Positions 16,422 to 48,012 of a stretch of 49,211 nt of DNA are shown piece after piece; position 1 is the first letter of the stretch, and each line of letters begins with the position of its first letter. Source of the stretch: Roseinatronobacter alkalisoli. Lineage in GTDB: Bacteria > Pseudomonadota > Alphaproteobacteria > Rhodobacterales > Rhodobacteraceae. Below the pieces are notes generated by a model. That model made no database searches. It was not told where the DNA came from and worked only from the letters and a program-made list of their open reading frames with translations. The translations under genes were made by a program, and so were the position numbers. The stretch is from the NCBI RefSeq assembly GCF_028745735.1, contig NZ_JAQZSM010000026.1:1-49211 (forward strand), given 5' to 3'.

Positions 16422-16610
16422 GGGGCCATGCACAAAGCCCGCGCCAGCGGTGGGCCGGGGGCTGCCGGTCCCACATTGGAGATGTTCACTTTATGCTGGC
16501 AGCATAACCCCGGCCTTCAAAGCGTGAGTCAACATCAGCTAAACCGGCAGGCCGCGGGACGGCCCGCCGATGGCGTGGGCCAGCCTGCGGCGTTTGCTCC
16601 GCGCCTTTGA
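16422..16610 (+). repeat. Structured intergenic repeat, copy A (long form)
   Basis: This is one of six related elements in the window. It begins GGGGCCATGCACAAAGCCCG, contains a central hairpin TTATGC-TGGCA-GCATAA, and ends with the arm around GGCAGGCCGCGGGACGGCCC. It starts 14 bases after the putR stop and fills most of the 270-base gap to the convergent gene ending at 16679. Copy C aligns with it almost end to end. Confidence 0.85.
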
Positions 16611-16678
16611 AAAAATGCCACCAACTGCTTCAGCCCGCTAGCAATCAGCGCTTGCCTGTCCTTCTGACATGATCATGC

Positions 16679-17884
16679 TTAGTGGCGGGTTGCAGTCAGC
16701 AAGGGCATTGGCCCGCTGCGCAGGATCAACTCGCCCTGATTGCCGATATCGAACCCGTTCGCATGTTCCAGCGCATCCAGAAAGCGCAATTCCAGATTGC
16801 GCAGCGCGGTCGGGCAGGCCAGCCGCGTTGTGCCCAGATCGCTGATCGACAAGGCATGATCACTGATTTCCGCCATCCCGACATAGCGATTGCAGGCCAG
16901 CCGCCCCGATATCTGACCATTCATCACTTCCAGTGTCAGATCGGGAAAATCCGCGCCCTGCGCATTTAACGGAACACCGAAAAGCGCGCTGACATGCCAT
17001 GCGCTGCCATGCAGCAGACTTAGCGGCGATCCGGCGCAGCCCGGGCTTTCACTGCCTGCGCGCCGGGACAGGGCGGCAGTCACAGGGTAGGGGGTACGCG
17101 CATGTGCCAGCCTGCAGGGGGCATCCGTCAGGCGCAGCGACATCGCATCGGATGCGAAGATGATATCCCCGTCATCACTCCGGCTGGCCTGCATCTGGTC
17201 AATCGTATCGTGATCGCCATCTGGTCGCGGCATGGTAACAAGCGCCTGCTCGCGCGTCAGGTCAATCTGCCAGCTTGCATCTGCGGCAAAGGCCGTAATG
17301 GGCAGGATCGGTTGTGCCGGAATGCGCGCGCAGGTCTGCGGCGCTGTGTCGGGCGCGGTAACGATGATATATTGCCCGGTATCCTGAAGCTGCGTGCCAT
17401 CGCTGGCCAGAAAGTTTTCATCGCTGTCGTCACCGGGCAAAAACAGGCGTGGCGGTTGCATGGAAATGGCGCGCAGCCCGTCCATGCGGCGCGCCAGCAC
17501 CAGCACATCCCCGTCATCACAGGCCCAGGCCGACCGGAAGCCAAGCGCAAGTATCGGATATAATGCGATATCCGGCAGGGCGCTGCGCCCGTTCAGCTGA
17601 ACAGGGGCGCTTTGGGCCAGTAGCTGGCCGTCATGCACCAGCCCCGCTTGCAGGCTGGCCGCCTGTCGCGGCAGCGTATCGAAACTGTGGGTGGCTGTGC
17701 TGTCATGGGCGCGGGCGTCAAGGCGCTGCTGGGCCAGCAACTCTCCGGCGCTATTGCGCACGACTGCGACGGCTTCGGCGCCATGTGGTATGGGGACATC
17801 CCATTGCACTGCTGCTGTCACATCGCGTGCGATACCGGGCGCAGCTGTCGCAAGCACGGTCATCGCAGCAAGATATGAACGCAT
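16679..17884 (-). CDS. Secreted protein with YbaY-like, MliC-like and META/HslJ domains
   Basis: The 401-residue protein carries a signal peptide (SYLAAMTVLATAAPGIA). Three regions follow. The first, at about residues 22-110, is a beta-sandwich resembling YbaY/YscW-type domains (LLAQQRLDARAHDS). The second, at about 135-225, has the two-cysteine pattern of MliC lysozyme inhibitors (SAWACDDGDVLVLARRM ... QTCARI). The third is a C-terminal META/HslJ domain with CNRYVGMAEISD and TTRLACPTALRNLELRFLDAL. An envelope-stability or inhibitor role is an inference. It shares this architecture with the gene at 30060-31007, so the two are paralogues. The ATG at 17884 was chosen because GGGAG lies six bases upstream; the open frame beyond it runs into efp. 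It is transcribed in the same direction as efp, 130 bases downstream of it. Confidence 0.75.
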   Translation of the reverse strand: MRSYLAAMTVLATAAPGIARDVTAAVQWDVPIPHGAEAVAVVRNSAGELLAQQRLDARAHDSTATHSFDTLPRQAASLQAGLVHDGQLLAQSAPVQLNGRSALPDIALYPILALGFRSAWACDDGDVLVLARRMDGLRAISMQPPRLFLPGDDSDENFLASDGTQLQDTGQYIIVTAPDTAPQTCARIPAQPILPITAFAADASWQIDLTREQALVTMPRPDGDHDTIDQMQASRSDDGDIIFASDAMSLRLTDAPCRLAHARTPYPVTAALSRRAGSESPGCAGSPLSLLHGSAWHVSALFGVPLNAQGADFPDLTLEVMNGQISGRLACNRYVGMAEISDHALSISDLGTTRLACPTALRNLELRFLDALEHANGFDIGNQGELILRSGPMPLLTATRH

Positions 17885-18014
17885 GGCATGCTCCCGCAGT
17901 TTCAGCCCCTTATAAGGGCTTAGCGCAAAGACGCCCCGCGCCACAAGGCGTATCACGGGAAAGATACCATCATGCCGGGCAGGGGGCCTGAAACAGCCCC
18001 CCAAACCGCGTAAC

Positions 18015-18578
18015 CTAGGCGCGTTCGGAATACTCAAAGGTTTCGGTATTCACCACGATATCTTCGTCCTGGCCCACAAAGGGCGGCACCAGAATGCGCA
18101 CACCATTGTCCAGAACCGCCGGTTTGAAGCTGTTTGCCGCAGTCTGCCCTTTGACGACCGGCTCGGTCTCAATGATCTTGCAGATCACTTTTTGCGGCAG
18201 CGAAATATTCAGCGCTTCTTCGCCATAATATTCGACAGTCACGGTCATGCCATCCTGCAGAAAGGGGCGGCGGTCGCCCAGAATTTCCACGTCCAGTTCG
18301 ATCTGCTCGAAGGATTCCATGTCCATGACCACAAGGCGGCCATCGGTTTCATACAGGAATTGCTGGTCCTTTTGTTCCAGCCGGACACGTTCCACCTTGT
18401 CTTCTGAGCGGAAACGTTCGTTCAGTTTGCGTCCGTCGCGCAGGTTCTTCATCTCGACCTGTGCAAATGCGCCACCTTTTCCGGGTTTCACATGGTTGAC
18501 CTTGACGGCAGCCCAAAGCCCGCCATCATGTTCCAGAACATTGCCGGGACGAATCTCGTTTCCGTTGATTTTAGGCAT
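18015..18578 (-). CDS. efp: Elongation factor P
   Basis: EF-P binds stalled ribosomes between the P and E sites and speeds peptide-bond formation at polyproline stretches. The 187-residue protein is full length with all three beta-barrel domains. The loop that reaches the P-site tRNA is [10 protein letters not shown] with Lys34, the residue modified by EpmA-type enzymes in bacteria that use that route; no modification enzyme is in the window. The C-terminal domain ends [11 protein letters not shown]. The Shine-Dalgarno region upstream of the ATG contains AAGG. The gene is divergent from the small gene at 18788. Confidence 0.97.
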
Positions 18579-18787
18579 GGGGTTACCTTGCTTTGCCTTG
18601 AATAATTGGTCTGCGCCCCTATATCCCGCAGACAGGGCTTAGGCAAGAACTCGATCTTGTGCCATGTATTTTTGCACCCATGTTAAAAATGCATGGCTGG
18701 TATGCGTCACCAGCGTAGCGAATCACAACGTAAACCGCGTATGCAGGCCCAAGCGGTAAATGCAAGAGCAAGAACAAGGAATGAAAT

Positions 18788-19114
18788 ATGTTCGATGCAG
18801 CGGATGGAACGGCCTTCACGCATGAGCAAGGGGCCCGTGCCCGCAAACTTTTCGCAGCTGTGGTACTGGCTGCACTGGATGATGCGATTGCGGATGACAA
18901 GAAATATGGTAACGGCCCGGAGCAGATTGCCCGCTGGGCGCGTTCGCGCGACGGGCGCGAAGTGTTGAGCTGCGCAGGCATCGACCCGAATGAACGTGTG
19001 GTTTCCGGCCTGATGGAATTTGTCGCCAAAGGCGTGCGCACGTCGGTTGCACTGTCGCGCGAAGAAAGCGAGCGGCGCAATGCCGCCGCCGCAGCGGAAG
19101 CTGAAGCCGCCTGA
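18788..19114 (+). CDS. DUF6280-type conserved small protein
   Basis: This 108-residue soluble protein has a highly regular, mostly helical sequence (ARKLFAAVVLAALDDAIADD, NGPEQIARWARSRDGREVLS, ERVVSGLMEFVAKGVRTSVA). I recognise it as the small family annotated DUF6280 in Rhodobacterales. No function is known to me. The strong conservation and the good Shine-Dalgarno AAGGAA six bases before the ATG indicate a real, well-translated gene. It ends in a strong intrinsic terminator and appears monocistronic. Confidence 0.85.
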   Translation: MFDAADGTAFTHEQGARARKLFAAVVLAALDDAIADDKKYGNGPEQIARWARSRDGREVLSCAGIDPNERVVSGLMEFVAKGVRTSVALSREESERRNAAAAAEAEAA

Positions 19115-19141
19115 CCTGACTGGCCGATACAAGAATTTCTG

Positions 19142-19171
19142 CCCCGCGCATAAGGCTGCGCGGGGTTTTTT
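19142..19171 (+). terminator. Rho-independent terminator after the DUF6280-type gene
   Basis: An eight-base-pair stem CCCCGCGC/GCGCGGGG with an eight-base loop is followed by six T, 27 bases after the stop codon. Confidence 0.92.
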
Positions 19172-19291
19172 ATTTTCATATGCGGTGATGGCTGCGGGCG
19201 CTGATGTCTGGCGTTTTGGGTATGTTCTGGCGTGTAATCAGCTTGGTTTATCCGCAAATCAGGTCAAATCTGATCTGACACCTATATGTGC

Positions 19292-19383
19292 GTATCCCAA
19301 ACGCGCGGAGCAAAGGCCGCAAGGCTGGCCCACGCCACCGGTGGGCCGTCCCGCAGCCTGCCGCTGGCGCGGGCTTGGTGCGA
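19292..19383 (-). repeat. Structured intergenic repeat, copy B (short form)
   Basis: Read on the minus strand, this copy begins at the CACCAAGCCCGCGCCAGCGG arm and passes directly into CAGGCTGCGGGACGG, skipping the roughly 95-base middle part of the long form. It ends TTTGGGATAC, as copy D does. It lies in the 338-base gap between two convergent genes, which otherwise holds only the terminator at 19142 and no supported gene. Confidence 0.8.
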
Positions 19384-19452
19384 AGGAGCGTCCGTTGTCT
19401 TGCCAGCGTTATTCCCCGCAAACGGGGTATTTCCACCAGCCAAACCCCAACT

Positions 19453-20232
19453 TTAACCGCTCATCTGTGTCAGGAAACCGTCGATCGCATCTGCCGTCGT
19501 GGCGGGGTGCGTCAGCGGCAGCATATGCCCGGCGCCGCTGATGCATTGCGCCTGCGCATCGGGTAACCTTTCGCATAGCGCGGCGTTGATCGCGCCTGCA
19601 ACGGGTGGCGACGCGCTGCCATGCAGCAGCAATACCGGCGCGCGTAACCCCTCCAGCCGTCCCGGTGCCAGAATACCCGCGCTGTCGTCATATATGGCCG
19701 GGGTCGTTGCCATGATCAGCGGTATTTTCGCGGAAATCCGGTCCTGTTCTGCAGGGGGCATTTCGCGGAAGGGCGTGCCCGTGCCCCATAAATCCAGAAA
19801 CAGCGCCGCAGCGGTGTGATAATCGCCAAGGGCGATGGCGCTGGCGAATTCCGCATCATGGGCGGCATGGGCCGCGTATTCGGGGCGGCTTCTGGCGGCG
19901 GCGAATAAAACCGGCTCTATCAGCACCAGGGCGCGCACCAGATCAGGGCGTTCCAGCGCCAGACGCAAGGCGATTGTCGCCCCGAAGGAATGCCCGATCA
20001 GCAGTGATGGTGCCTGCAGCAGGGTCTGGGCATGGGCGACGCATTGCCCCTGAAACTCGCCCGTCCCGTCCCAGTCGTCAGACCGGCCATGGCCGGGCAT
20101 GTCAAACCCCTGCGCCGCAAGCGGGGTGCGCATCGCGGCCAGCAGCGCCCGCCAGTCGCGCGCGCGGCCAAGGGCGCAATGCAGCATCAGGGCGGGCATG
20201 CCCTGTGTGCTGAACCGGTAATCGGCAATCAC
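19453..20232 (-). CDS. Alpha/beta-fold hydrolase
   Basis: The 259-residue protein is an alpha/beta hydrolase with the nucleophile elbow GHSFGA at about residue 99. The oxyanion region is near MLHCALGRARDW, where the common HG has become HC. The acidic residue is likely near VLLLHGSASPP, and the catalytic histidine lies in ISGAGHMLPLTHP. It resembles esterases or lactonases of the MhpC/PcaD group, but the substrate cannot be inferred. Its start codon overlaps the stop of the upstream isomerase gene by four bases (ATGA), so the two are translationally coupled and probably act together. Confidence 0.85.
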   Translation of the reverse strand: MIADYRFSTQGMPALMLHCALGRARDWRALLAAMRTPLAAQGFDMPGHGRSDDWDGTGEFQGQCVAHAQTLLQAPSLLIGHSFGATIALRLALERPDLVRALVLIEPVLFAAARSRPEYAAHAAHDAEFASAIALGDYHTAAALFLDLWGTGTPFREMPPAEQDRISAKIPLIMATTPAIYDDSAGILAPGRLEGLRAPVLLLHGSASPPVAGAINAALCERLPDAQAQCISGAGHMLPLTHPATTADAIDGFLTQMSG

Positions 20233-20825
20233 ATGGTGACCCCAAGATGCTGCGCCAGAAAATCCAGCCTGTCCTGCCCCCAGAAGCGTTCCTCCCCCAC
20301 CACGAAGAACGGTACGCCGAACACACCATCGGCCACCGCGTCTTCCAGATTGCGGGGATAGATTTCGGCACCTTGCAACATGCCACTGAAGGCAAGCGCA
20401 GGGTCGAAACCCGCAGCCGTCAGGCAGTCGCGGATCACGTCATCATCTGCGATATTGCGGTCTTCGGCCCAGCAGGCGCGGGTCAGGCCATACAGCAATT
20501 CCGCCATGTCCCCGCCGCCCGATTCCTGTGCGGCGATGATGGCATAGGATGCGGGCGCGGGGTTGGTCGGGAAAAATGCCGGGCGCAGCGTCAGGGGCAT
20601 GTCCAGCCGGTCCGACCAGCGGCGCAATTCCTGCAACCGGTATGCTTTGCGGTTGTCATGACGCTCGGCCAGCACCTGCCCGCCGGTGCGCGCGAACAGC
20701 GCTGTCGGGTCAAGGGGCTTGTAGCGCAGGCTGGCACCCGCCTTGGCCGCGATCTGTGCCGGACGCTTGCCCGCCAGATATGTCCAGGGCGACAGGGGCG
20801 TAAAGTAGTAGTCAATATGTGGCAT
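20229..20825 (-). CDS. 2-hydroxychromene-2-carboxylate isomerase family protein
   Basis: The 198-residue protein is a thioredoxin-fold DsbA-like member of the HCCA isomerase / kappa-class glutathione transferase family. The N-terminal YFTPLSPWTYLAG places a serine-proline motif where DsbA has CxxC, as in glutathione-dependent isomerases. The helical insertion and the C-terminal GVFGVPFFVVGEERFWGQDRL are typical. Family members isomerise hydroxychromene carboxylates in naphthalene breakdown, but most such genes outside those clusters have unknown substrates, and no naphthalene genes are seen here. It forms a coupled pair with the downstream hydrolase. Confidence 0.88.
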   Translation of the reverse strand: MPHIDYYFTPLSPWTYLAGKRPAQIAAKAGASLRYKPLDPTALFARTGGQVLAERHDNRKAYRLQELRRWSDRLDMPLTLRPAFFPTNPAPASYAIIAAQESGGGDMAELLYGLTRACWAEDRNIADDDVIRDCLTAAGFDPALAFSGMLQGAEIYPRNLEDAVADGVFGVPFFVVGEERFWGQDRLDFLAQHLGVTM

Positions 20826-20931
20826 TTGTCACGGCTCCTTGCCTTGGCGGTTTGCAAGATCGTAGCGGGGTGGTAAGCGGTGTCAATCTTGTCCGAATCC
20901 ACTCCGGCCCCATTTCGTCAAGGATTGCCCC

Positions 20932-21951
20932 ATGATCGACCGCACTGAACCCAAGCTGATTTCCGGCAACGCGAACATACCGCTTGCCAAGGCCATAGCG
21001 CGACGCATGTCGCTGCATCGTGGCATGAATGTCGGGCTTGTTGATGCCCGTGTGGAACGGTTCAACGATCAGGAAGTCTTTGTCGAAGTGTATGAAAATG
21101 TCCGTGGCGAGGATATGTTCATCATCCAGTCCACGTCGAACCCCGCCAATGACAACCTGATGGAATTGCTGATCATCGCTGATGCGCTGAAGCGGTCGTC
21201 GGCATCGCGGATCACGGCAGTTATTCCCTATTTCGGCTATGCCCGTCAGGACCGCCGCACCAAGGCCCGCACGCCGATTTCCGCCAAGCTGGTGGCGAAC
21301 ATGATCGCGCAGTCCGGGATTGAACGCATTCTGACGCTGGATCTGCATGCCGCCCAGATTCAGGGGTTCTTCGATATTCCGGTGGATAACCTGTATGCCG
21401 CGCCGGTATTCGCGCTGGATGTGCTGCATCATTTCAAGGGCCGTTTGCAGGATGTAACCGTCGTGTCGCCCGATGTCGGCGGTGTGGCACGCGCGCGCGA
21501 ACTGGCCAAACGCATTGGCTGTGCGCTGGCCATCGTGGATAAACGCCGCGAAAAGCCCGGTGAAATTGCCGAAATGACGGTTATCGGCGATGTAAGCGGC
21601 AAAAGCTGCATCATTGTGGACGATATCTGCGACACTGCCGGAACCCTGTGCAAGGCCGCCGAAGTCTTGACAGAGGCCGGCGCAACAGAAGTTCACAGCT
21701 ACATCACCCATGGTGTGCTGTCCGGCCCGGCCGTGGAACGCATCACAAATTCGGTCATGAAATCATTGGTGATCACCGATTCCATCGCGCCCACCGAAGC
21801 AGTGAAATCCGCCCATAACATCCGCATTGTGCCGACCGCACCGATGTTCGCCCAAGGTATTCTGAATACCTGGAAAGGGACATCCGTGTCGTCGCTCTTT
21901 GACACCGAAACGCTGACCCCGATTTATGAAGGGCTGTACGGCGAGGTTTGA
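20932..21951 (+). CDS. prs: Ribose-phosphate pyrophosphokinase
   Basis: Prs makes PRPP from ribose 5-phosphate and ATP, feeding purine, pyrimidine, histidine, tryptophan and NAD synthesis. The 339-residue protein has the class I features: [19 protein letters not shown], the catalytic flexible loop with DKRREKPGE, and the PRPP-binding site [16 protein letters not shown]. It is slightly longer at its N-terminus than the E. coli enzyme, which is usual in alphaproteobacteria. AAGGA lies seven bases before the ATG. The gene is divergent from the isomerase/hydrolase pair and is followed 39 bases after its stop by copy C of the intergenic repeat. Confidence 0.97.
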
Positions 21952-21990
21952 GATCTGCTGCTTTTTCCGGGGACGGGGGGAAGCGGTCGC

Positions 21991-22180
21991 GGGGCCATGC
22001 ACCAAGCCCGCGCCAGCGGTGGGCCGGGGACTGCCGGTCCGACGTGAGAGGGGTTCACTTTAAGCAGGCGGCATAACCCTGGCCTTCAATGCTTGAATCA
22101 GCACCAGCGAAACCGGCGGGCTGCAGGGCGGCCCACCGCTGGCGCGGCGGGCTGCGCCCTTTACTCCGCGCGTTTGGGAC
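21991..22180 (+). repeat. Structured intergenic repeat, copy C (long form)
   Basis: This copy starts GGGGCCATGCACCAAGCCCG and ends with CTCCGCGCGTTTGGGAC. Its two arms, GCGCCAGCGGTGGGCC and GGCCCACCGCTGGCGC, are perfectly complementary. It occupies most of the 301-base gap between the convergent prs and nfeD-like genes; the remaining bases contain nothing I can support as a gene. Confidence 0.85.
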
Positions 22181-22252
22181 TCTCCAACACCTGTTTCACA
22201 CCAGAACCGACAAGCCGTGCGCATACCGGCGGGTATGCTCCCGCCCCGCCCT

Positions 22253-22585
22253 TCAGTCCTGCGTGCCGTCGGGTGGCGCGCTTTTCCTGCGGTCCGATTT
22301 CGGCAGCGAATCCAGCGAATCGAAATCGTTGATGTCACGGTGGGATTTGCGCCACGCGGCGTTCCAGCGTGACAGGCCCAGCCACACCACCAGCCCCAGC
22401 GCCGCCCAGATCAGCGCCTGAACCAGAACCGGCAGCCCCGGCATCAACCAGACCAGCGCGGCCACTGCCACAGCCCCCAGCGCGAACCCAAGCGCGACAT
22501 AGACAGTGGTCATCATTTCCGCGATCAGCAGGATCACGGCAATGATGCCCCATATCATCCAGTCCGGCAGGCCAAGGTTTTCCAT
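22253..22585 (-). CDS. NfeD-like membrane protein
   Basis: This 110-residue short NfeD protein has two or three closely spaced membrane helices (WMIWGIIAVILLIAEMM, VALGFALGAVAVAALVWL, VLVQALIWAALGLVVWLG) and a charged cytosolic tail. The long-form protease domain and most of the OB-fold domain are absent. NfeD proteins usually pair with SPFH/band-7 proteins, and this one follows directly after such a gene with three bases between the stop and start codons. A role in membrane microdomains or membrane-protein quality control is the usual inference. Confidence 0.88.
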   Translation of the reverse strand: MENLGLPDWMIWGIIAVILLIAEMMTTVYVALGFALGAVAVAALVWLMPGLPVLVQALIWAALGLVVWLGLSRWNAAWRKSHRDINDFDSLDSLPKSDRRKSAPPDGTQD

Positions 22586-22588
22586 TGC

Positions 22589-23443: not shown

Positions 23444-23503
23444 CAGACCAGCCTTTTTGATTATATTGGATTGCGGCCATGGTCGCGCGAAAACGCGCGC
23501 TGT

Positions 23504-26870: not shown

Positions 26871-26911
26871 GATTTATGCCCGCCGCGTGACAGTTGCAAG
26901 TCCATGCACGC

Positions 26912-26921: not shown

Positions 26922-26930
26922 AGAACCGCC

Positions 26931-27554
26931 ATGAGTGACCCTGAAAACACCAGTGTTATCCGCATTGCCCGCGCAGGCGGTGATGTCGAACCCGCCCAGC
27001 CCATCGATCTGGCTGAACGGGTGCGTTCCCTGCGCCGTGCGCGGGGCTGGACGCTGGAACAGGCCGCAAGGGCCGCCGGGCTGGCGCGATCCACCCTGTC
27101 CAAGATCGAAAACGGGCAGATGTCGCCCACCTATGACGCGCTGAAAAAACTGGCGGGGGGGCTGGAAATTACGGTGCCGCAATTGTTTACCCCCCCTGAA
27201 ACCACGCGGGCCGGTGGGCGCATGGCGCTGACATCGCGCAGCGAAGGCACCTCCCACCCGACGCCGACTTATGACCACCGCTTGCTGGCCGCACAACTGA
27301 CGTCGAAGAAGATGTTGCCCTATCAGGCCCGCGTGCGGGCGCGCAGCATGCAGGATTTCGACGGTTGGGTGCGCCATGGCGGCGAGGAATTCCTGTATGT
27401 CCTGACCGGCGAAATCCGGCTGTTCACCGAATTCTATGCGCCCGTGGACATGAAACGCGGTGACAGCGCCTATTATGACGCGACCATGGGGCATAATGTC
27501 GTGTCATTGTCGCGCGAGGATGCGGAAATCCTTTGGGTTACTTCGCTGGACTGA
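26931..27554 (+). CDS. XRE-family regulator with C-terminal cupin domain
   Basis: The 207-residue protein combines an N-terminal XRE helix-turn-helix at about residues 28-85 (RVRSLRRARGWTLEQAARAA, LARSTLSKIENGQMSPTYDA) with a C-terminal cupin sensor domain (HGGEEFLYVLTGEIRLFTEF, KRGDSAYYDATMGHNV). Such regulators sense small molecules and control neighbouring catabolic or transport genes. A longer frame starts at 26865 inside the divergent gap, but the ATG at 26931 was preferred because it gives a normal N-terminus and lies after AAAGAGAA. The divergent CoA ligase operon is its probable target. Confidence 0.9.
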   Translation: MSDPENTSVIRIARAGGDVEPAQPIDLAERVRSLRRARGWTLEQAARAAGLARSTLSKIENGQMSPTYDALKKLAGGLEITVPQLFTPPETTRAGGRMALTSRSEGTSHPTPTYDHRLLAAQLTSKKMLPYQARVRARSMQDFDGWVRHGGEEFLYVLTGEIRLFTEFYAPVDMKRGDSAYYDATMGHNVVSLSREDAEILWVTSLD

Positions 27555-27574
27555 ACGGTGGATGGCCGGGGGGA

Positions 27575-27802: not shown

Positions 27803-29986
27803 CTAATCATCCTCATGGGTCAGTTCGGGCACATCCTCGGCCCCTGCTGACCCGCGCCCCGAAAGCGACGGGTTCTCCATGAAAAACCGATGGCAGTTGA
27901 ACAGGCGGCGTTCCTCTCCCTCACCTGGCAGAACGCGCAGCGCGGGGCCATCGGGTTGCAGTACCCAGCTTTGCGCCTCATCCGCCAGATTTGCGGCCAT
28001 GATCTGGCGCACGATCTGGGCTTTCACGGTCAGATTGTTGATTTCCACCAGCGTTTCCACCCGCCGCACCAGATTGCGGCCCATCCAGTCTGCCGAACTG
28101 ATGAATACCCGCGCCTGATCCGATGGCAGGCCCGCGCCATTGCCGAAACAGACAATGCGCGAATGTTCCAGAAACCGGCCCACGACGGATTTGACGCGAA
28201 TATTCTCGGACAGGCCCTGAATGCCGGGGCGCAGCCCGCAGATGCCGCGCACGACAAGGCTGATTTCCACACCGGCGCGGCTGGCCTCATACAGGGCATC
28301 AATCACACCGGGGTCGATGATCGAATTCATCTTGGCCCAGATCTGCGCGGGCCTGCCGGAACGGGCATGTTCCGCCTCCGCCGCGATAAGCTGCAACAGG
28401 CGCGATTTCATGCTGATGGGCGAAATGGCCAGATTTTCCAGCATTGCCGGTTCAGCATAGCCGGAAACATAGTTAAACACCCGCGTGGCATCGCGCCCAA
28501 GCGCCGCGTCACAGGTGAACAGCGACAGATCTGTGTAAATCCGCGCCGTGATCGGGTGGTAATTGCCGGTTCCGAAATGGGTATAGGTGACCAGCTTGTC
28601 CCCTTCGCGGCGCACAACGGCGCTGATCTTGGCATGGGTCTTGTAGTTCACAAACCCATAGACGACATGCGCGCCTGCACGTTCCAGCCTGCGCGACTGG
28701 CGGATATTTGCGGCTTCGTCAAAGCGTGCTTTCAGTTCGACAAGTGCTGTGACGGATTTGCCCGCCTCTGCGGCTTCGCACAGGGCGGCAACGATAGGGC
28801 TGTTGCGCGACGTGCGGTAAAGCGTCTGGCGGATGGCCAGCACATCGGGATCGCGCGCCGCCTGTTCCAGAAACCGCACCACCATGTCAAAAGTTTCATA
28901 GGGGTGGTGCAGCAACATGTCCTTTTGCCGGATGGCGGCAAACATGTCGCCATGATGGTCCTGCACACGTTCGGGTACGCGCGGGGTGAAACCGGGCCAT
29001 AACAGGTCTGGGCGGTCATCCAGCACCAGTTCCTTCAGCGTGGAAATGCCCATGATGCCCTGCACCTCTATCACTTCGGCATCGGACACGCCCAGTTCTT
29101 CCATGACCAGATCGCGCAGATCCTGCGGTGCGCCTGTCGAAATCTTCATGCGCACGACTTCGCCCCGGCGGCGGCGTTTCAGGGCCACTTCGAATTCGCG
29201 GACCAGATCTTCGGCTTCCTCCTCGACTTCCAGATCGCTGTCGCGCAACACCGAGAAGGTGCACGATCCCAGCAACCGGTAGCCCGGAAACAGGTTGTCC
29301 ATTTCCGCAAGAATCAGTTCTTCCAGCGGCAGCATGCGGATGCTGTCGCCGGGCAGGCGCAGGAAACGGTCAATCTGGCCAGGAACTGGCACCAGCGCAT
29401 CCAGCTTGCGCCCACGCTTGTCTTCCAGCTCCATGGCCAGCGAAAACCCGGCATTCGGGATGAACGGAAACGGGTGCGCGGGGTCAATGGCCAGCGGCGA
29501 CAGAACGGGAAAGACATTCTCCAGGAAGTATTGCGCCACTGCCGCGCGGTCCTGCTCACTCAGGTCGTGGCGCGACAGGATGGTGATTCCGGCTGCTGCC
29601 AGAAGGGGGCGCAGAATGGCCCAGACATCCTGCTGCTTTTCCATCAGGCTGCGCGCATCTTCGTTGATCAGCACAAGCTGCTCTGCGGGGGTGCGCCCGT
29701 CATCGGACGGGCTGCTGTTGCCCGCGCGCGCCAGTTGCCGCAGGCCCGCCACCCGCACTGTATAGAATTCATCCAGATTGGCCGCCGAAATGGACAGAAA
29801 ACGCACCCGTTCCAGCAATGGCACACGCGGGTTCATCGCTTCTTCCAGCACGCGCCAGTTAAAGGCCAGCCATGACATTTCGCGGTTGAAAAACCGTTCC
29901 GGCCCGGCAGGGTCAAACCCTTCCAGCACCTGTGGGGCGGGGAATGGTGCATTCAGGAAATCGGCGGATGGAAGGGTCTGGGTCAT
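27803..29986 (-). CDS. ppk1: Polyphosphate kinase 1
   Basis: PPK1 reversibly polymerises the terminal phosphate of ATP into inorganic polyphosphate. The 727-residue protein has the N, H, C1 and C2 domain order. It begins with the typical [20 protein letters not shown], has the phosphorylated histidine in [18 protein letters not shown], and has [16 protein letters not shown] in the C2 domain. The ATG at 29986 follows AGGA by four bases and gives normal length; the longer frame to 30052 is less likely. In many proteobacteria ppk is followed by ppx (exopolyphosphatase); here the intergenic repeat and a convergent regulator follow instead. Confidence 0.96.
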
Positions 29987-31815: not shown

Positions 31816-31818
31816 GCG

Positions 31819-35238: not shown

Positions 35239-35268
35239 ATGGTATACTTGCGCGAAAAGGGGGTCATC

Positions 35269-35670
35269 ATGCGTGCGATATTTGCGGCATTGGGGCTTGT
35301 GCTGGCCGTGAGCACTGCACAGGCACAGGACCATGCCGGTATTGGCCAGACCATCGAAAGCCAGATCGCCGCGTTGCAGGCGGATGATTTCGACCGTGCC
35401 TTCAGCTTTGCCAGCCCCGATATAAAGCGCCTGTTCGCAACGCCGGAGCGGTTTGGCGCGATGGTGCGGAACGGCTATCCGATGGTGTATCGTCCCGCAG
35501 ACGTCACCATGCTGGAGCAGACCGAAACCCCGGCAGGTGTGGTTCAGCGTGTCATGATCCGCGATGCGCAGGGGCGGCTGCATTTTCTGGCCTATCAGAT
35601 GGTGCCTGCGGCGGATGGCTGGCAGATCAACGGTGTGCAGTTGCTTCAGGCGCCTGAAACAGGTGTCTGA
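35269..35670 (+). CDS. Secreted DUF4864-like protein
   Basis: The 133-residue product has a signal peptide (AIFAALGLVLAVSTAQAQ) and a mature alpha+beta domain resembling DUF4864 / NTF2-like folds: IGQTIESQIAALQADDFDRA, FASPDIKRLFATPERFGAMV, and the C-terminal strands HFLAYQMVPAADGWQINGVQ. It is presumably periplasmic; no function is known to me. The ATG at 35269 has AAAAGGGGG upstream; the open frame reaching back to 35197 covers the tandem repeat and is not coding. The gene follows lysK by 72 bases on the same strand. Confidence 0.85.
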   Translation: MRAIFAALGLVLAVSTAQAQDHAGIGQTIESQIAALQADDFDRAFSFASPDIKRLFATPERFGAMVRNGYPMVYRPADVTMLEQTETPAGVVQRVMIRDAQGRLHFLAYQMVPAADGWQINGVQLLQAPETGV

Positions 35671-36063: not shown

Positions 36064-38352
36064 ATGAACCTGGCCGTTACCAACCCGCAGGCAATTACGC
36101 CCCCGCCGTTTTCGGCAGGTCTGGACCAGTGGTCGCAAACCACGGGCCGCCCCGGAACACCGACATATGACACTGCCGCATATGCCGCTTTTGTGCCCGC
36201 TGACCCCGATTTCAGCGGCGCGCTGGAAATTCAGCATATCAGCGCCACGACGCGGCTGCGCTGGATGGGGGAAGTGCCGGTCCTGCCCGGCAGCTACCTG
36301 CGCGTACGCGCGCGCATCAAGGCAATGGCCGGTGTCATGCCGGATATACGCATTGCAACATGGGCGGGCGACAGCAGCGGCACCGAAATTCCGGGACTGA
36401 CAACCACCGGCCCACAGGTGACGCTGACCACCTATGGCCAGATTGTCGAAGTGTCGGCCATCATCGGCACCGGCGCGCGCCCGGGTGTGAACATGGTCTG
36501 GCCGCTGTCTGTGAATATCGCGCATGTGGGGCTGGACCTGACCGGCCCGACAGGCGGGGTGGTGCGCATCGATGACCTGATCATCGAGGATATTTCCGTC
36601 CTTTATACCCGCGACATGCTGGGCCTTGTCGATGTGCGCGATTTCGGCGCGCTGGGCGACGGGGCAAGCGATGATCACAGCGCGTTTCTGGCAGCGATGG
36701 CGGCGGCAAACGGGCGCAGCCTGCTGGTGCCAGAGGGCGTGTTTGCCCTTGGCGATGATCTGACGATCAGCATGCCCGCAGTGTTTCGCGGCACGCTGAG
36801 CATGGCGCCCGAAACCGTGCTGATCCTGCAGCAGAATTTCAACCTGCCCGGCTATGAAGCGGCCTTTGGCAGCGCTGAACTGGGGTTTCGCAAAGGGGTG
36901 CAGGCGCTGTTTCACAGCAATGAACATATGGAATTCAACCTGAAGGGGCGGCGCGTCCCCTTGACCGCGCCTGTCGATGTGTTCGCGCTTGCGGGCTATG
37001 ATGACACATCGCGGCGCAGGGTGCTGGCCGATGGTCAGCTGGATTTCATCAACAGCCCCGCATGGGACACTGAAACCGTGACGGGTATTGCCACCTACAC
37101 ACCATCCAGCCCGCTGTTGTTAAGCGGCATCAGCAATGTGGCCGCCATTCCCGTGGGTGCGCGCGTCAGCGGTGTCGGCGTGGGCCGCGAAGTATATGTG
37201 CGTGCGCGCAATGTGGCGGCGGGTACACTGACCCTCAGCCTGCCGCTGCATGGTGGCGCGATGACGCAGGAATTCACCTTTGAACGCTTCAGATACGGGC
37301 TGGATTTTTCGGGCTTTTCCAGTCTGCGCAATTTCGAATTCCACAATCTGGAATTCATCTGCCGTGGTCGCGGTTCGGCGGTCATGCTGGCCGAAGGGGG
37401 GCGGATTTTCCGCTTCCATCAATGCGATTTCAACCGCCCGCGCGACCGGGCCATCACATCGATCGGGGTGGCATGTCAGGGGTTGATGATCGACAATTGC
37501 CAGTTCAGCAGTTCGCAGATGACAATGAATTCGCAGGATCGCACGGTCATCGGCTTTAATGTCAACAATAACGATACCAAGATCCGCAACAACCGCGTTG
37601 TGCTGTGGGCGCATTTCGGGGTGGTGGCCGGCAGCGGCCATATCATCAGCGGCAATCACTTCTTTCAGGGTGATTCAACTGCCGCGGGCATACGTCAGGC
37701 AGGACTTGTCCTGAGTGCGGGAAATGTCAAAACCACCGTGACCGGCAATTACATAGATAATTGCTTTATCGAGATGACCAATGAACATGACGCCTTCCCC
37801 GACCATACCACGGGCTTTTCCTTTGGCGGGTTGACGGTCACCGGCAATATCTTCTTTGCGATCAGCGTCGCGCCATGGTTCCGTTACCTTGTGTTCAAAC
37901 CCTATGGGTCAGGGCATTTCATTCAGGGGCTGGTGGTTCAGGGCAATGTGTTCCGCCTGTCGGGCAACGCGATAGAGCGGGTGGAGGTCGTGGATACCAC
38001 ATTCGCGGGACTGCAATATAACCGCTTCCGCAATGTGCTGTTCCAGAACAACAGCTATAACGGCGTTGATTTCCCGACAGAAAGCCCGAGCGTCATCATT
38101 CATGAACAAAACACCGCAGCCACGAACTGGACCATCGATTCAGGTGGCAAAATGCCCTTTGGCGGGCGGGTGCGCACTGTGACATCGGTGGTCATGGAAG
38201 ATGCGGCGCGCGATGACAGCGACACAATCCGCCATGAGGCACCCTATGTGCAGGTCAATCAGGGACCGGACAGCAATCAGGCGCGGTTGCGCTGGCCGGT
38301 GGCCACACGCGGACGCGCGATTGTGACCATGCGCGTTGACCGCCCGCTATAG
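36064..38352 (+). CDS. Large pectate-lyase-like beta-helix protein (GH28-related)
   Basis: The 762-residue protein has an N-terminal beta-sandwich of about 180 residues that looks like a carbohydrate-binding module. It is followed by the hallmark VRDFGALGDGASDDHSAFLA, which opens the right-handed parallel beta-helix of pectate-lyase / GH28-related proteins and phage tailspikes. The rest is a repeated pattern of short strands with Asn/Gly turns (IRNNRVVLWAHFGVVAGSGH, VTGNYIDNC, VVQGNVFRL). There is no signal peptide, so export would need a dedicated system. An extracellular polysaccharide-binding or depolymerising role is inference. The ATG at 36064 has AGAGAGGG six bases upstream. The next gene lies on the opposite strand, six bases away. 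Confidence 0.8.
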   Translation: MNLAVTNPQAITPPPFSAGLDQWSQTTGRPGTPTYDTAAYAAFVPADPDFSGALEIQHISATTRLRWMGEVPVLPGSYLRVRARIKAMAGVMPDIRIATWAGDSSGTEIPGLTTTGPQVTLTTYGQIVEVSAIIGTGARPGVNMVWPLSVNIAHVGLDLTGPTGGVVRIDDLIIEDISVLYTRDMLGLVDVRDFGALGDGASDDHSAFLAAMAAANGRSLLVPEGVFALGDDLTISMPAVFRGTLSMAPETVLILQQNFNLPGYEAAFGSAELGFRKGVQALFHSNEHMEFNLKGRRVPLTAPVDVFALAGYDDTSRRRVLADGQLDFINSPAWDTETVTGIATYTPSSPLLLSGISNVAAIPVGARVSGVGVGREVYVRARNVAAGTLTLSLPLHGGAMTQEFTFERFRYGLDFSGFSSLRNFEFHNLEFICRGRGSAVMLAEGGRIFRFHQCDFNRPRDRAITSIGVACQGLMIDNCQFSSSQMTMNSQDRTVIGFNVNNNDTKIRNNRVVLWAHFGVVAGSGHIISGNHFFQGDSTAAGIRQAGLVLSAGNVKTTVTGNYIDNCFIEMTNEHDAFPDHTTGFSFGGLTVTGNIFFAISVAPWFRYLVFKPYGSGHFIQGLVVQGNVFRLSGNAIERVEVVDTTFAGLQYNRFRNVLFQNNSYNGVDFPTESPSVIIHEQNTAATNWTIDSGGKMPFGGRVRTVTSVVMEDAARDDSDTIRHEAPYVQVNQGPDSNQARLRWPVATRGRAIVTMRVDRPL

Positions 38353-38358
38353 CGCCGG

Positions 38359-40485: not shown

Positions 40486-40486
40486 C

Positions 40487-43283: not shown

Positions 43284-43322
43284 GGGGGGGCTTGGGTGGC
43301 TGCCGCCCCCCAAACCCCCTGC

Positions 43323-43348
43323 CTGAAGGGGGGCACGCCCCCCTTCAG
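43323..43348. terminator. GC-rich palindrome after the ftsW-murG-murC operon
   Basis: CTGAAGGGGGGC and GCCCCCCTTCAG form a nearly perfect 11-base-pair hairpin with a four-base loop. It lies 39 bases after the last stop of the operon and between it and the convergent GMC gene, so it can end transcription from either side, although the T-run is poor. Confidence 0.6.
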
Positions 43349-43358
43349 AAACCCCGGT

Positions 43359-43379
43359 GGATATTTATACCAGACTGAA
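43359..43379 (+). repeat. Short intergenic motif GGATATTT...CCAGACTGAA, copy 2
   Basis: GGATATTTATACCAGACTGAA differs from the copy at 33028 by one inserted base and two substitutions and, like it, directly follows a strong GC-rich hairpin. It ends three bases before the convergent GMC stop codon. Confidence 0.55.
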
Positions 43380-43381
43380 CA

Positions 43382-44998: not shown

Positions 44999-45191
44999 CC
45001 CCCCGGTTTTGGGCAGTGTGGCCAAGCGTGCGGGGGGCTTCAAGCGGGAAAATGTCGCACAGCGCCGCGGCTTGAATTTTTCCAAGTGATCAAATTTCTT
45101 GCATCATCGTGGCGAATGCCCAAGAATACATCATTATGACGCCGCCATGGGTGGCGCCTGCGTCCGCGCGATGACAGATTGCCAAACACCA

Positions 45192-45211
45192 CTTACGCAA
45201 ATTGACGTAAG
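45192..45211. promoter_or_regulatory. Inverted repeat CTTACG-N8-CGTAAG
   Basis: The palindrome lies 21 bases upstream of the substrate-binding protein start. It contains TTGCGTAA on the minus strand, the same core as the motifs at 26912 and 35217. A regulator site for the ABC operon is likely; the regulator is not in the immediate neighbourhood. Confidence 0.45.
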
Positions 45212-45231
45212 ACCAACAGGAGGGTTCTTGA

Positions 45232-46236
45232 ATGTTCCACCGCACTTTGACTGCTGCAATCGGCTTTGGTGCCCTTGCGGTTTCTGCTCATGCGCAGACA
45301 AGCATGCCATTCGCACTGGACTGGCGGTTTGAAGGGCCGTCTGCGCCTTATTTCGTGGCCATCGACAAGGGCTATTTCGCAGATGCGGGCCTGGAGGTGG
45401 AAGTGACCGCAGGGCAGGGCAGCCTTGATGCGATTCCCAAAGTGGCGACGGGTGCATTCCCGGTGGGTTTTGCCGATATCAACAGCCTGATCAAGTTTCT
45501 GGACCAGAACCCCGATGCGCCGGTGATCGGTGTGATGATGGTCTATGACAAGCCGCCATTCGCCATTGTGGGGCGCAAGTCGCTGGGTATTGAAACCCCG
45601 TCCGATCTGGAAGGGCGCATTCTGGGTGCCCCGCCCCCCGATGGTGCATTCGCGCAATGGCCGATTTTCGTGGCGGAAACCGGCATTGATGAATCACAGG
45701 TCACCATTGAACCCGTGGGGTTCCCGACGCGCGAGCCGTCGCTGGCCGAAGGCACTGTTGCGGCTGTGACCGGGTTTTCGTTCACATCATTCCTGAGCAC
45801 GGCGCGGCTGGGCGTGCCTGAAGATGATCTGACCGTCATTCTTATGGCTGATCATGGGGTGGACCTTTATGGCAACGTGATCATCGCCAATACGGATTTT
45901 GCTGAAGCCAACCCTGATGCGGTGTCGGGCTTCCTGGAAGCTGTTGCCAAGGGCTGGGTGGACACGATTGCAGACCCCGAAGCGGCGATTGAGTCACTGG
46001 TCAGCCGGAACCCCGCAATGGATGGCGAACTGGAATTGCGCCGCCTTGAACTGGCGCTGGCCGATACGGTTGTCACCGACTGGGTTCTGGAAAACGGCAT
46101 GGGCATTATCGATGCCGATCGTTTCGCCAATTCGCTGGAGCAGATCAAGCTGACCTATGAATACCAGACGGAACCCGATGCATCGGTCTATTTCACCGAT
46201 GCTTTCCTGCCCGAAGGCGGGTTCAAGCTGGACTGA
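45232..46236 (+). CDS. ABC transporter substrate-binding protein, NMT1/THI5-SsuA type
   Basis: The 334-residue periplasmic protein has a signal peptide (TLTAAIGFGALAVSAHAQ) and the NMT1/SsuA-type fold: FALDWRFEGPSAPYFVAIDK, GYFADAGLEVEVTAGQGS, and KVATGAFPVGFADINSLIK. Members bind sulfonates, taurine, nitrate or pyrimidine precursors of thiamine; the ligand here is open, and I found no TPP riboswitch. A strong AGGAGGG lies seven bases before the ATG. It heads an operon with the ATPase and permease that follow. Confidence 0.9.
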   Translation: MFHRTLTAAIGFGALAVSAHAQTSMPFALDWRFEGPSAPYFVAIDKGYFADAGLEVEVTAGQGSLDAIPKVATGAFPVGFADINSLIKFLDQNPDAPVIGVMMVYDKPPFAIVGRKSLGIETPSDLEGRILGAPPPDGAFAQWPIFVAETGIDESQVTIEPVGFPTREPSLAEGTVAAVTGFSFTSFLSTARLGVPEDDLTVILMADHGVDLYGNVIIANTDFAEANPDAVSGFLEAVAKGWVDTIADPEAAIESLVSRNPAMDGELELRRLELALADTVVTDWVLENGMGIIDADRFANSLEQIKLTYEYQTEPDASVYFTDAFLPEGGFKLD

Positions 46237-46296
46237 TACATGGTGAGCGACCAGCGCGGCGTGGGCTGCGCTGGTGATACTGGCTTCGGGGGCGGG

Positions 46297-47094
46297 ATGC
46301 AGAATCTTATCGAAATCAAAGGTGTGAAGCACGCCTATCAGACTGATGCAGGGCCGTTGCCGGTTCTGGACGGGCTGGAAATTTCTGTTCCCGAAGGCGG
46401 GTTCGTGGCTGTGGTCGGCCCGTCAGGTTGTGGCAAATCCACCCTGACGCGGTTGATCGCGGGCCTGATGAAACCCGATGAGGGCGAAGTCTGGCTGCAT
46501 GGCGAAAAGGTCAAGGGGCCGCGGTCCACTGTGGGCATGGCGTTTCAGAACCCGGTGCTGCTGGAATGGCGCACGATTCTGAAAAATGTGCTGCTGCCGC
46601 TGGAAATTGTGCCCAGCAAATTGTCGCGCAAACAGGCAGAGGACCGCGCGCGTTTCCTGCTGTCGCTGGTGGGGCTGGAAGGGTTCGAGGACAAGCGCCC
46701 GTCGGAATTGTCGGGCGGCATGCGCCAGCGCGCCAGCCTGTGCCGCGCGCTGATCCATCAGCCTGATGTGCTGATTCTGGACGAACCTTTCGGCGCGCTG
46801 GATGCGTTCACCCGCGAGGATTTGTGGCAGACCATGCACAGGGTCAAGGAACGCGAACCCTTTACCGGGGTGCTGATCACGCATGACCTGCGCGAATCGA
46901 TCTTTCTGGCCGATCAGGTTGTCGTGTTGTCGGGCCGTCCTGCGCGCACGCAATATGTGCTGGATGTGCCGTCCAGCGGGCCGCGCACATTGGAAGACCT
47001 GTATACCGCTGTGGCCGCAGAACAGCTGAACATCCTGCGCCACCAGATTCAGATTGCCCAGGGGCGCAGTACCGCAGGGGAGGGCGCGGCATGA
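46297..47094 (+). CDS. ABC transporter ATP-binding protein, NitT/TauT type
   Basis: The 265-residue ATPase has Walker A VGPSGCGKSTLTR, the signature LSGGMRQRASLCRALI, Walker B VLILDEPFGALDAF and the switch histidine in LITHDLRES. It belongs to the TauB/SsuB group and energises uptake by the neighbouring permease. Translation could start at the ATG at 46240 or, more like the family, at 46297 (MQNLIEIKGVKHAYQT); the second was chosen but the Shine-Dalgarno sequences do not settle it. Its stop overlaps the permease start by four bases. Confidence 0.9.
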   Translation: MQNLIEIKGVKHAYQTDAGPLPVLDGLEISVPEGGFVAVVGPSGCGKSTLTRLIAGLMKPDEGEVWLHGEKVKGPRSTVGMAFQNPVLLEWRTILKNVLLPLEIVPSKLSRKQAEDRARFLLSLVGLEGFEDKRPSELSGGMRQRASLCRALIHQPDVLILDEPFGALDAFTREDLWQTMHRVKEREPFTGVLITHDLRESIFLADQVVVLSGRPARTQYVLDVPSSGPRTLEDLYTAVAAEQLNILRHQIQIAQGRSTAGEGAA

Positions 47095-47858
47095 ACAAGC
47101 ATATTCGCGCCTTTGTCGTGCCGGTTATCGCTGTAGTGGTGTTTCTGGCCTTCTGGGAATGGCTGGTCTGGTTCAATGGCTGGCCACGATTCAAGATGGC
47201 GGCCCCGTCGGACCTGCCGCCAGCGTTTGAACGCCATTGGCCGCTGTTTCTGTCGATGGGTTGGCAGACATTGTGGCGCACAGTGGTCGGGCTGTTTCTG
47301 GCGGTGCTGTTCGGCACGCTTCTGGGCATGATCATGGGGTTTTCGCGCACCATGCGCGATGCGCTGTATCCGCTGTTGGTGGGGTTCAATGCGATCCCCA
47401 AGGCGACAGTGGTGCCGATTGTCGCGCTGATGTTCGTGGGCCAGCATGATTTCAACACGGTGCTTCTGGCCTTCATGATTTCGTTCTTTCCGATTGCGGT
47501 GTCGGTCAGTATCGGCCTGTCCACGCTGGAACCTGAATACCGCGATATTCTGCGCAGCCTTGGCGCATCGCAGGCCACGATCTTCTGGAAGATTGCCCTG
47601 CCGAAAACCCTACCGGAATTCTTTGGCGCGTTGAAAGTGGCGGTAACACTGGCGTTCATCGGCACCAATCTGATGGAAATCGTCAGCCCGCATGGGCGGG
47701 GCTTGGGCGCGTTGTTTGATTCGGGGCGCACAAATTCGGACTTTCCGCTGATGTTTGCGGTGTTGATTGCCTTGGCGTTTCTGGGGATCGTGCTGTATTA
47801 CATCGTGGTGGCGCTGGAAAAGATATTCGCGGGCTGGGCAGAACGCGCGCCGGGGTAG
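47091..47858 (+). CDS. ABC transporter permease, NitT/TauT type
   Basis: The 255-residue protein has six predicted helices and the cytosolic EAA-like loop YRDILRSLGASQATIFWKIA that docks onto the ATPase. With the preceding two genes it makes a complete importer in the inner membrane. The ATG overlaps the ATPase stop by four bases. Copy F of the intergenic repeat begins 67 bases after its stop. Confidence 0.9.
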   Translation: MNKHIRAFVVPVIAVVVFLAFWEWLVWFNGWPRFKMAAPSDLPPAFERHWPLFLSMGWQTLWRTVVGLFLAVLFGTLLGMIMGFSRTMRDALYPLLVGFNAIPKATVVPIVALMFVGQHDFNTVLLAFMISFFPIAVSVSIGLSTLEPEYRDILRSLGASQATIFWKIALPKTLPEFFGALKVAVTLAFIGTNLMEIVSPHGRGLGALFDSGRTNSDFPLMFAVLIALAFLGIVLYYIVVALEKIFAGWAERAPG

Positions 47859-47924
47859 GGCGGGCCGTCGCCTGCTGGAATCACATAGCTGGTTGGATGT
47901 GGCTGAAGGGGGCATTGATGCCTG

Positions 47925-48012
47925 GATCAAGCCCGCGCTGTCGGCAGGCCGCGGGACGGCCCGCCGGTTGCGTGGGCCAGCCTTCGGCCTTTGTTCCGCA
48001 TCTCGGGAATAC
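47925..48012 (+). repeat. Structured intergenic repeat, copy F (short form)
   Basis: AAGCCCGCGC passes through TGTCGG directly into CAGGCCGCGGGACGGCCC, the same internal junction as copy B. The outer stem is AGGCCG/CGGCCT. It ends near GGGAATAC. It lies in the 312-base gap between the ABC permease and the EamA transporter, both on the plus strand; the remainder of that gap holds nothing I can support as a gene. Confidence 0.75.

What the first reader, a model, noticed from the sequence alone, without database searches (positions are those of the whole stretch)
16422..48012. Six-copy structured intergenic repeat family with complementary arms
Copies at 16422, 19292, 21991, 27575, 35709 and 47925 share a left arm (AAGCCCGCGCCAGCGGTGGG), a central hairpin in most long copies, and a right arm (GGCAGGCCGCGGGACGGCCC onward to GGGATAC). 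The left arm is complementary to part of the right arm over 18-20 bases. The right half can fold as AGGCCGC enclosing GGCCCAC/GTGGGCC and closed by GCGGCCT. Copy B keeps the outer stem through a T-G wobble. Six copies in 49 kb, in both orientations and only between genes, indicate an actively spread or selected element. I do not recognise it as a named REP, BIME or MITE family.
Basis: partly seen in the sequence, partly recalled or inferred. Interest (0 to 1): 0.8.

Follow-up and report, generated by a model that had tools for sequence, protein, structure and literature searches.

The report
Rhodobacteraceae-wide structured intergenic repeat family
The six repeats are copies of a folded, roughly 173-letter DNA element that sits between genes, mostly where two genes run into each other, occurs from one to over a hundred times per genome in many members of one bacterial family, and matched no catalogued repeat or RNA family that could be checked here.

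Summary
The six copies are real: four long, two shortened, three per strand, all intergenic. They belong to a ~173-nt structured repeat. The host genome gives 127 matches among 150 scored candidates. Covariance models match 178 of 394 sampled genomes of the host's GTDB family, here called Rhodobacteraceae, but none of 380 other Alphaproteobacteria. Rfam: no match at gathering (window) or at E<=1 (four loci).
Across genera 96.9% of stem cells stay paired, with two-sided changes at 16 of 31 pairs. The right strand pairs equally well with a 3' copy of the left-arm end, a mutually exclusive alternative.
Copies lie at gene 3' ends: 43 of 70 between convergent genes against 13.5 expected; 27 of 37 in a second set. 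Between related species, sites persist but the element is often in opposite orientation and at paralogue-level identity, so copies are moved or exchanged.
No RAYT-type transposase in the host. Best reading: a non-autonomous mobile element whose folded single strand is under selection, tolerated or used at 3' ends. Mobiliser and function are inferred, not shown.

The parts
16433..16607 (+). copy A, long form (left arm from ~16439, conserved apical block with CACTTTATGC, right arm ending ~16578, 3' hairpin to 16607); between convergent genes 15938-16408 (+, AsnC/Lrp) and 16679-17956 (-)
   Evidence: R1 hit 185.5 bits; fold; gene calls
19300..19378 (-). copy B, short form: outer left-arm end joined to the right arm; inner left arm and apical block missing; between predicted gene 18788-19114 (+, no Pfam test of this frame) and 19453-20232 (-, alpha/beta hydrolase)
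   Evidence: R1 hit 57.6 bits; alignment
22002..22174 (+). copy C, long form; between prs 20932-21951 (+) and 22253-22585 (-), convergent
   Evidence: R1 hit 173.1 bits
27583..27755 (-). copy D, long form; between HTH/cupin gene 26931-27554 (+) and ppk 27803-29986 (-), convergent
   Evidence: R1 hit 181.9 bits
35713..35888 (-). copy E, long form; 42 nt after the DUF4864 gene 35239-35670 (+), before 36064-38352 (+), tandem
   Evidence: R1 hit 163.2 bits
47927..48004 (+). copy F, short form; between 47091-47858 (+, ABC permease) and 48126-49049 (+, EamA), tandem; the orthologous gap in G033 is 36 nt without an element
   Evidence: R1 hit 61.7 bits; fold

Best explanation
The six repeats are copies of a non-autonomous, structured mobile repeat of Rhodobacteraceae (in the GTDB sense; NCBI splits it). 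Core ~173 nt: a 27-pair imperfect stem made by two inverted arms, a ~75-nt apical block with conserved cTTTAT and, less strictly, GCC-AAATCCG and CCAAATCG, and a 3' hairpin of the type GCGCGGC-GGCC-TNC-GGCC-TTGATT-CCGCGC. The 3' CCGCGC is a copy of the outer left arm, so the right arm can pair with either, never both. SHOWN: family-wide spread, copy-number differences, covariation, both pairings kept, intergenic and convergent bias, turnover and orientation change at shared sites. INFERRED: the folded single strand (G.T wobbles exceed A.C mismatches on one strand) is the form recognised or used by an enzyme supplied in trans; copies landing elsewhere are lost, while those between stop codons survive and serve, in either orientation, as a stable hairpin at mRNA ends. 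The enzyme is not identified.
For: Spread: R2 matches in 178 of 394 family genomes (at most 7 candidates scored per genome, so a lower bound) and 0 of 380 non-family genomes of the class (same limit). With 150 candidates scored: 127 in G000, 140 in G033, and 10 to 136 in 12 genomes of 12 other genera, chosen for their good hits. Structure: 96.9% of cells paired against 84.5% shuffled and at most 45.8% in slid versions, 16 of 31 pairs with two-sided changes; alternative stem 97.5% paired, two-sided changes at 2 of 6 pairs. Polarity: G.T against A.C 43:6 across genera, 88:21 in G000, 47:9 in a second set. Context. Turnover: of 247 orthologous gaps G000/G033, 8 filled in both, 7 only in G000, 5 only in G033; orientation opposite at 6 of 7 comparable shared sites, and at 2 of 3 against G028. 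Identity at the G000/G033 shared sites (0.72-0.82) is about that of random copy pairs (mean 0.78); only one of the seven ranks high (2 of 21). G033 against G028: 2 of 5 shared sites opposite, one of them reversed between outer arms within flanks of 93-94% identity. G002 against G027: same convergent gene pair, the gap is little more than the element, opposite orientation. Full-length copies on plasmids of Roseinatronobacter and Pseudosulfitobacter.
Against: No transposase: no Y1/RAYT match in G000 or G028 and only a sub-cut-off fragment in G033; other transposase families were not sought. Of ten genes lying between neighbouring copies, 8 have clear Pfam matches, none to a transposase. No target-site duplication or clean empty site was found. 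Opposite orientation at shared sites could be inversion in place or repeated insertion into favoured gaps; the data do not separate these. Three of the five G033/G028 sites keep orientation, one at 0.94 identity; 9 further copies there had no anchor and were dropped. Site sharing between G000 and G033 is significant over all gaps but not among convergent gaps alone (p 0.096). Single-sequence folding energies are no better than shuffles for two of the three long copies tested (z -0.54 and -0.61; copy A -2.72).
Confidence: 0.6

Rival explanations
1. A host-selected RNA element at mRNA 3' ends (bidirectional stabiliser, decay barrier or termination aid), kept because it works for both genes of a convergent pair; spread is secondary.
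For: Strong convergent bias (43 of 70; 27 of 37). Where a neighbouring gene could transcribe the + strand (convergent, tandem-same), pairing is kept better: pooled G.T:A.C 108:16 against 26:13, unpaired cells 60/2220 against 30/596 (p 0.007 and 0.006, cells not independent). Conserved apical sequence.
Against: In tandem gaps orientation is random (10 same, 14 opposite; 7:7; 5:4). The replication set alone is not significant overall (p 0.27 and 0.14; its G033 part alone gives 0.026 for unpaired cells). Without the four most polymorphic pairs the G000 wobble excess falls to 32:19. Terminator-like sites are not depleted before elements (8 of 82 against 9.6 expected). Avoidance of promoters alone would give the same gene context. 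216 of 394 family genomes gave no match (capped search).
Confidence: 0.25
2. A classical MITE of an IS with a DDE transposase: terminal inverted repeats, target duplication, parental IS elsewhere (a special case of the best reading, so the odds overlap).
For: Outer arms GGCCTGAA/TTCAGGCC in 19 of 98 long copies, nine at 218-219 nt spacing; exchange at one site runs from arm to arm.
Against: Outer arms were not recognised in 79 of 98 copies, and the flanking conserved sequence in Pseudosulfitobacter is another one (by eye). The family-wide core ends are direct, not inverted, copies of CCGCGC (by eye). No IS with these ends was found, but I did not search for one systematically.
Confidence: 0.15
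3. A member of the CcrM-associated intergenic repeats (CIR) of Caulobacter and other Alphaproteobacteria.
For: Both are >100 nt and intergenic (CIR ~110 bp with GANTC, passages of PMC2229807; inverted-repeat organisation of CIR is recalled). A GANTC site sits at one fixed position in 25 of 38 rows other than those of G000, G028 and G033.
Against: R2 finds nothing in 380 non-family Alphaproteobacteria. The 3' hairpin pattern gave only single 3-mismatch hits in 7 of those 380, but it also missed the four other family members sampled, so it is a weak test. GANTC is only mildly enriched in G000 copies (3.18 per kb against 2.25 in other gaps). The CIR paper itself was not held.
Confidence: 0.07
4. 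REP/BIME elements mobilised by a RAYT.
For: Inverted pair of palindromic arms; 3'-end and convergent location as described for REPs (abstract of PMC3733652).
Against: No RAYT in G000 or G028; core 173 nt against 20-40 bp; not the short stems of 8-9 bp with A/T pairs at the first two positions given for CGTC families (PMC3733652 section 6).
Confidence: 0.05

Closest known systems
REP / BIME / REPIN elements with RAYT
   Same: High-copy, intergenic, hairpin-forming, at gene 3' ends and between convergent genes, inverted pair of arms, non-autonomous
   Different: 173-nt core with conserved apical block and competing 3' hairpin; no RAYT found in the host; not 20-40 bp tagged palindromes
CIR (CcrM-associated intergenic repeats) of Caulobacter and other Alphaproteobacteria
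   Same: Alphaproteobacterial, >100 nt, intergenic, a GANTC site in many copies
   Different: No detectable match of this family outside the GTDB family in 380 genomes; GANTC not universal; CIR sequences could not be compared
ERIC and Correia/NEMIS elements
   Same: Structured intergenic MITE-like repeats of similar size (NEMIS 155 and 107 bp forms, PMC2229807; ERIC size recalled), with long and short forms in NEMIS
   Different: Other classes of Pseudomonadota; TIR with TA ends listed for them (PMC2229807) were not recognised here; no sequence comparison was made
Rfam structured RNA families (e.g. SAM/SAH of Rhodobacterales)
   Same: Covarying structure restricted to one group
   Different: Multi-copy, no fixed gene partner, no Rfam match at E<=1 for four loci

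Membership tests
REP/BIME with RAYT | RAYT (Y1_Tnp, PF01797) in the carrier genome, flanked by the repeat | tested here: not met
   0 matches in G000 and G028, sub-cut-off 30-aa fragment in G033; the two genus members with a Y1_Tnp over the cut-off (G005, G020) have one R1 match each. Other genera were not searched for PF01797.
REP/BIME with RAYT | Short 20-40 bp palindrome tagged GTAG or CGTC | tested here: not met
   Core 173 nt with a 27-pair stem; definition from PMC3733652 abstract and section 6
REP/BIME with RAYT | Extragenic, 3' of genes | tested here: met
   70 of 70 intergenic, 43 convergent
Classical IS-derived MITE | Terminal inverted repeats at both ends of full copies | tested here: inconclusive
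   Outer arms in 19 of 98 copies of G000 and G033
Classical IS-derived MITE | Target-site duplication | tested here: inconclusive
   No clean empty site; sequence outside genes too diverged or the site rearranged
Classical IS-derived MITE | Parental transposon with the same ends | not tested
   Only PF01797 was sought genome-wide
CIR (Caulobacter) | Sequence/structure similarity to CIR1-4 | not testable with these tools
   Paper PMC166474 not held; indirect: 0 of 380 other Alphaproteobacteria match R2
CIR (Caulobacter) | Conserved GANTC (CcrM) site | tested here: inconclusive
   25 of 38 rows at one position, but only 29 of 61 G000 long copies have any
Any Rfam family | Match to the covariance model | tested here: not met
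   0 at gathering for the window; 0 at E<=1 for L001, L073, L075, L076

The most novel reading that the evidence does not exclude
A previously undescribed class of mobile structured nucleic acid: one strand folds into either of two mutually exclusive stems sharing a strand, a conserved apical block is the recognition signal for an unknown enzyme, and whole cassettes are exchanged or inverted at fixed positions between convergent genes, where they act as orientation-independent 3'-end elements across the Rhodobacteraceae.
Probability: 0.3. Interest if true: 0.85.

Novelty: new variant of a known kind. Interest (0 to 1): 0.72.

Why it matters
Rhodobacteraceae include model phototrophs and abundant marine bacteria. 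A covarying repeat found in 178 of 394 sampled genomes of the family, at over 100 copies in some, would be a missing annotation class and a repeat population without a known transposase. Shared sites with flipped or exchanged cassettes make the open question of how REP-like elements move, and why they accumulate at 3' ends, directly testable; the R1/R2 alignments give a ready model for annotation.

Tried and rejected
RAYT mobilisation: not supported for the host. Autonomous version flanked by the element: ten genes between close copies are ordinary or unknown. Fixed-locus RNA gene: among 73 flanking genes from 39 loci only five cross-locus similarities appeared, so no common partner. Terminator replacement: an apparent depletion of terminator-like sites before elements (8 of 82 against 24 of 104) vanished with length-matched controls. 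Whole-element strand asymmetry of folding energy: + more stable in 38 of 58 and 26 of 37 (two Roseinatronobacter sets), but only 17 of 41 across genera; there the main stem alone is more stable on + (30 of 41 with RNA, 39 of 41 with DNA parameters), so RNA and single-stranded DNA cannot be told apart. Pseudosulfitobacter strains for an empty site: the one variant strain looked at has a rearranged, not empty, site. The ppk neighbourhoods of 80 named loci: strong hits in L088 only (one full, 174 bits; one weaker, 52.6 bits), two short weak hits elsewhere.

Biases: the 30 copies of A3 and the first 834 kb of G000 (plus the window) were picked because they held top hits, so their density (70 copies) is not the genome average; the second set (C1, C65; 757 kb) had 16 long copies at E<=1e-22. 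In one search, 76 non-overlapping matches were found; one search used the 70 scoring >=35 bits. Orientation counts leave out one shared site with two copies in G000 and include one short copy. In one search, 9 of the 19 copies in the two genomes had no anchor and were dropped. Genes are from my own finder, not a published annotation. Alignments A5-A8 were fitted to R1, which leans towards the main stem; the alternative outer 3' stem was not in R1. In A6, 12 of 41 rows are from the host's genus and 29 from 28 other genera. Fisher tables for unpaired cells used totals instead of paired counts, a small error; one search used the right ones.

Names: G033 = Roseinatronobacter sp. S2 rests on identical plasmid coordinates; G028 and G027 are named by equal contig lengths; the host itself is only placed in that genus by kinship. 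The family name in the GTDB sense is recalled.

Papers: PMC3733652 (abstract, outline, section 6, passages); passages only of PMC8632094, PMC2864571, PMC10508151, PMC2229807, PMC10969869, PMC2267715; PMC6006769 searched for four terms, no passage found; everything else search listings. The CIR definition beyond those passages is recalled.
Full report
OBSERVATION. The six copies exist at the stated places. A covariance model finds them as four full-length copies (163-186 bits) and two short ones (58 and 62 bits), three on each strand. The short forms join the outer left arm directly to the right arm. The two arm 20-mers, with up to 3 mismatches, are expected 0.02-0.03 times in the window by chance and occur five times each.

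HOST GENOME. The window is contig C50 of a 4.84-Mb genome. Named ppk relatives and search kinship place it in the genus Roseinatronobacter as GTDB draws it. blastn lists 41 matches with 40 of 177 candidates scored; R2 gives 127 matches at E<=1e-4 with 150 of 4504 candidates scored, so the true number is at least 127 at that threshold. Rfam has no match in the window at gathering and none at E<=1 in four element loci.

DISTRIBUTION. R1 matches 29 of 37 genomes of the genus at E<=0.001; three (G000, G028, G033) reach the 75 candidates scored, G034 has 73 and G016 67. In the family, R1 matches 143 of 394 and R2, built from 41 sequences (12 of the genus, 29 of 28 other genera), 178 of 394, both at E<=1e-4 with at most 7 candidates scored per genome. 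In the class, 385 genomes were searched in the same way: 3 of 5 family members match, 0 of the 380 others; this is also a negative control for the model. A pattern for the 3' hairpin gave single 3-mismatch hits in 7 of those 380 against 3 for the reversed control pattern, but it hit only G000 among the five family members, so it is a weak test. With 150 candidates scored, 12 genomes of 12 other genera, chosen for good hits, carry 10 to 136 matches each. Named carriers: a Roseinatronobacter sp. S2 plasmid and Pseudosulfitobacter plasmids with full-length hits, and partial matches in Salipiger plasmids.

STRUCTURE. In the 41 aligned copies, 96.9% of stem cells form standard pairs (shuffles 84.5%; slid versions at most 45.8%) and 16 of 31 pairs show changes on both sides. 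Within G000 alone the signal is weaker but present: 8 of 30 pairs, 40 cells against 10.5 shuffled. The outer right strand (columns 147-152) pairs with the 5' arm in the main stem and, equally well (97.5%), with a 3' copy of that arm, with two-sided changes at 2 of 6 pairs; rows L192, L194 and L198 change all three segments together (by eye). The apical cTTTAT is conserved (TTTAT in at least 90% of the rows outside the top six), GCC-AAATCCG and CCAAATCG less strictly, the 3' segment well. Energies of single sequences are unremarkable against shuffles for two of three long copies, so the case rests on covariation.

WHICH STRAND. In the stems, G.T exceeds A.C on the + strand: 43:6 across genera and 88:21 in G000, 47:9 in an independent set. 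A requirement on both DNA strands at once would show no such bias. In G000 the excess drops to 32:19 without the four most variable pairs. Pooled over both Roseinatronobacter sets the excess is larger where a neighbouring gene can transcribe the + strand (108:16) than where it cannot (26:13), p 0.007, cells not independent; the first set alone gives p 0.016, the second alone 0.27. Folding energies of whole elements show the strand bias in the two Roseinatronobacter sets but not across genera.

GENE CONTEXT. With my own gene finder, 70 of 70 copies in 834 kb are intergenic: 43 convergent (13.5 expected from gap length), 24 tandem (39.5), 3 divergent (17.0); 41 of 108 convergent gaps there hold a copy. 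These contigs were hit-rich by choice. In a second set of 37 long copies (16 from C1 and C65 of G000, 21 from G033): 27 convergent, 5 tandem-same, 4 tandem-opposite, 0 divergent, 1 inside a predicted gene. In 37 loci of other genomes: 17 convergent, 14 tandem (7 same, 7 opposite), 4 divergent, 2 at an edge. Terminator-like sites are not replaced by the element once lengths are matched.

EVOLUTION AT SITES. Of 247 orthologous gaps between G000 and G033 (median protein identity ~91%), 8 are filled in both, 7 only in G000, 5 only in G033, 227 in neither; sharing is far above chance over all gaps (p 2e-8) and in tandem gaps (4e-5), not significantly so in convergent gaps alone (0.096). Yet at comparable shared sites the orientation is opposite in 6 of 7, and sequence identity (0.72-0.82) is about that of random copy pairs (mean 0.78); only the same-orientation site ranks high (2 of 21). 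Between the closer G033 and G028, 5 shared sites show 3 same (0.85-0.94 identity) and 2 opposite (0.81, 0.83), flanks 86-98%; 9 other copies had no anchor. At one opposite site the flanks (93-94%) run up to outer arms GGCCTGAAGCTG on the left and TTCAGGCCA on the right, and everything between is reversed. G002 and G027 carry the element in opposite orientation in the same convergent gap, which consists of little else. So sites persist while cassettes are inverted or replaced. Repeated insertion into favoured gaps, inversion in place and exchange between copies are not separated.

MOBILISER. PF01797 is absent from G000 and G028. No transposase shows among ten genes lying between neighbouring copies, and the flanking genes of 39 loci share almost nothing. 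Other transposase families were not searched.

VERDICT. A real, family-wide structured repeat that no searched resource was seen to describe (Rfam; paper listings). It works most like a REP/MITE-type repeat; the REP definition was tested and not met, the MITE definition is open. I file it as a new variant of a known kind.

Noticed in passing
G000 C98:107680, C98:111307, C98:62611, C54:281803: Four copies carry what looks like the same extra ~40-nt palindromic insert in the 3' hairpin, perhaps a second small repeat nested in this one.
   Followed up: no
L238:1420-1720: A Pseudosulfitobacter plasmid copy has a ~25-nt insert in the right arm.
   Followed up: no
L206:1501-1673 and 1831-2003: Two full copies on the same strand 157 nt apart.
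   Followed up: no
L231:2071-2295: A second repeat next to the element, with 82% matches on other Pseudosulfitobacter plasmids.
   Followed up: no
A6 column 169: A GANTC (CcrM) site at one fixed position of the 3' hairpin in 25 of 38 rows other than those of G000, G028 and G033.
   Followed up: partly
window 36064-38352 (+): A long predicted gene (ORF of up to 773 aa) without any Pfam match at 1e-5, just after copy E.
   Followed up: no
G005 and G020 (L083, L084): Y1_Tnp genes over the Pfam cut-off in two genus members that have only one R1 match each.
   Followed up: no
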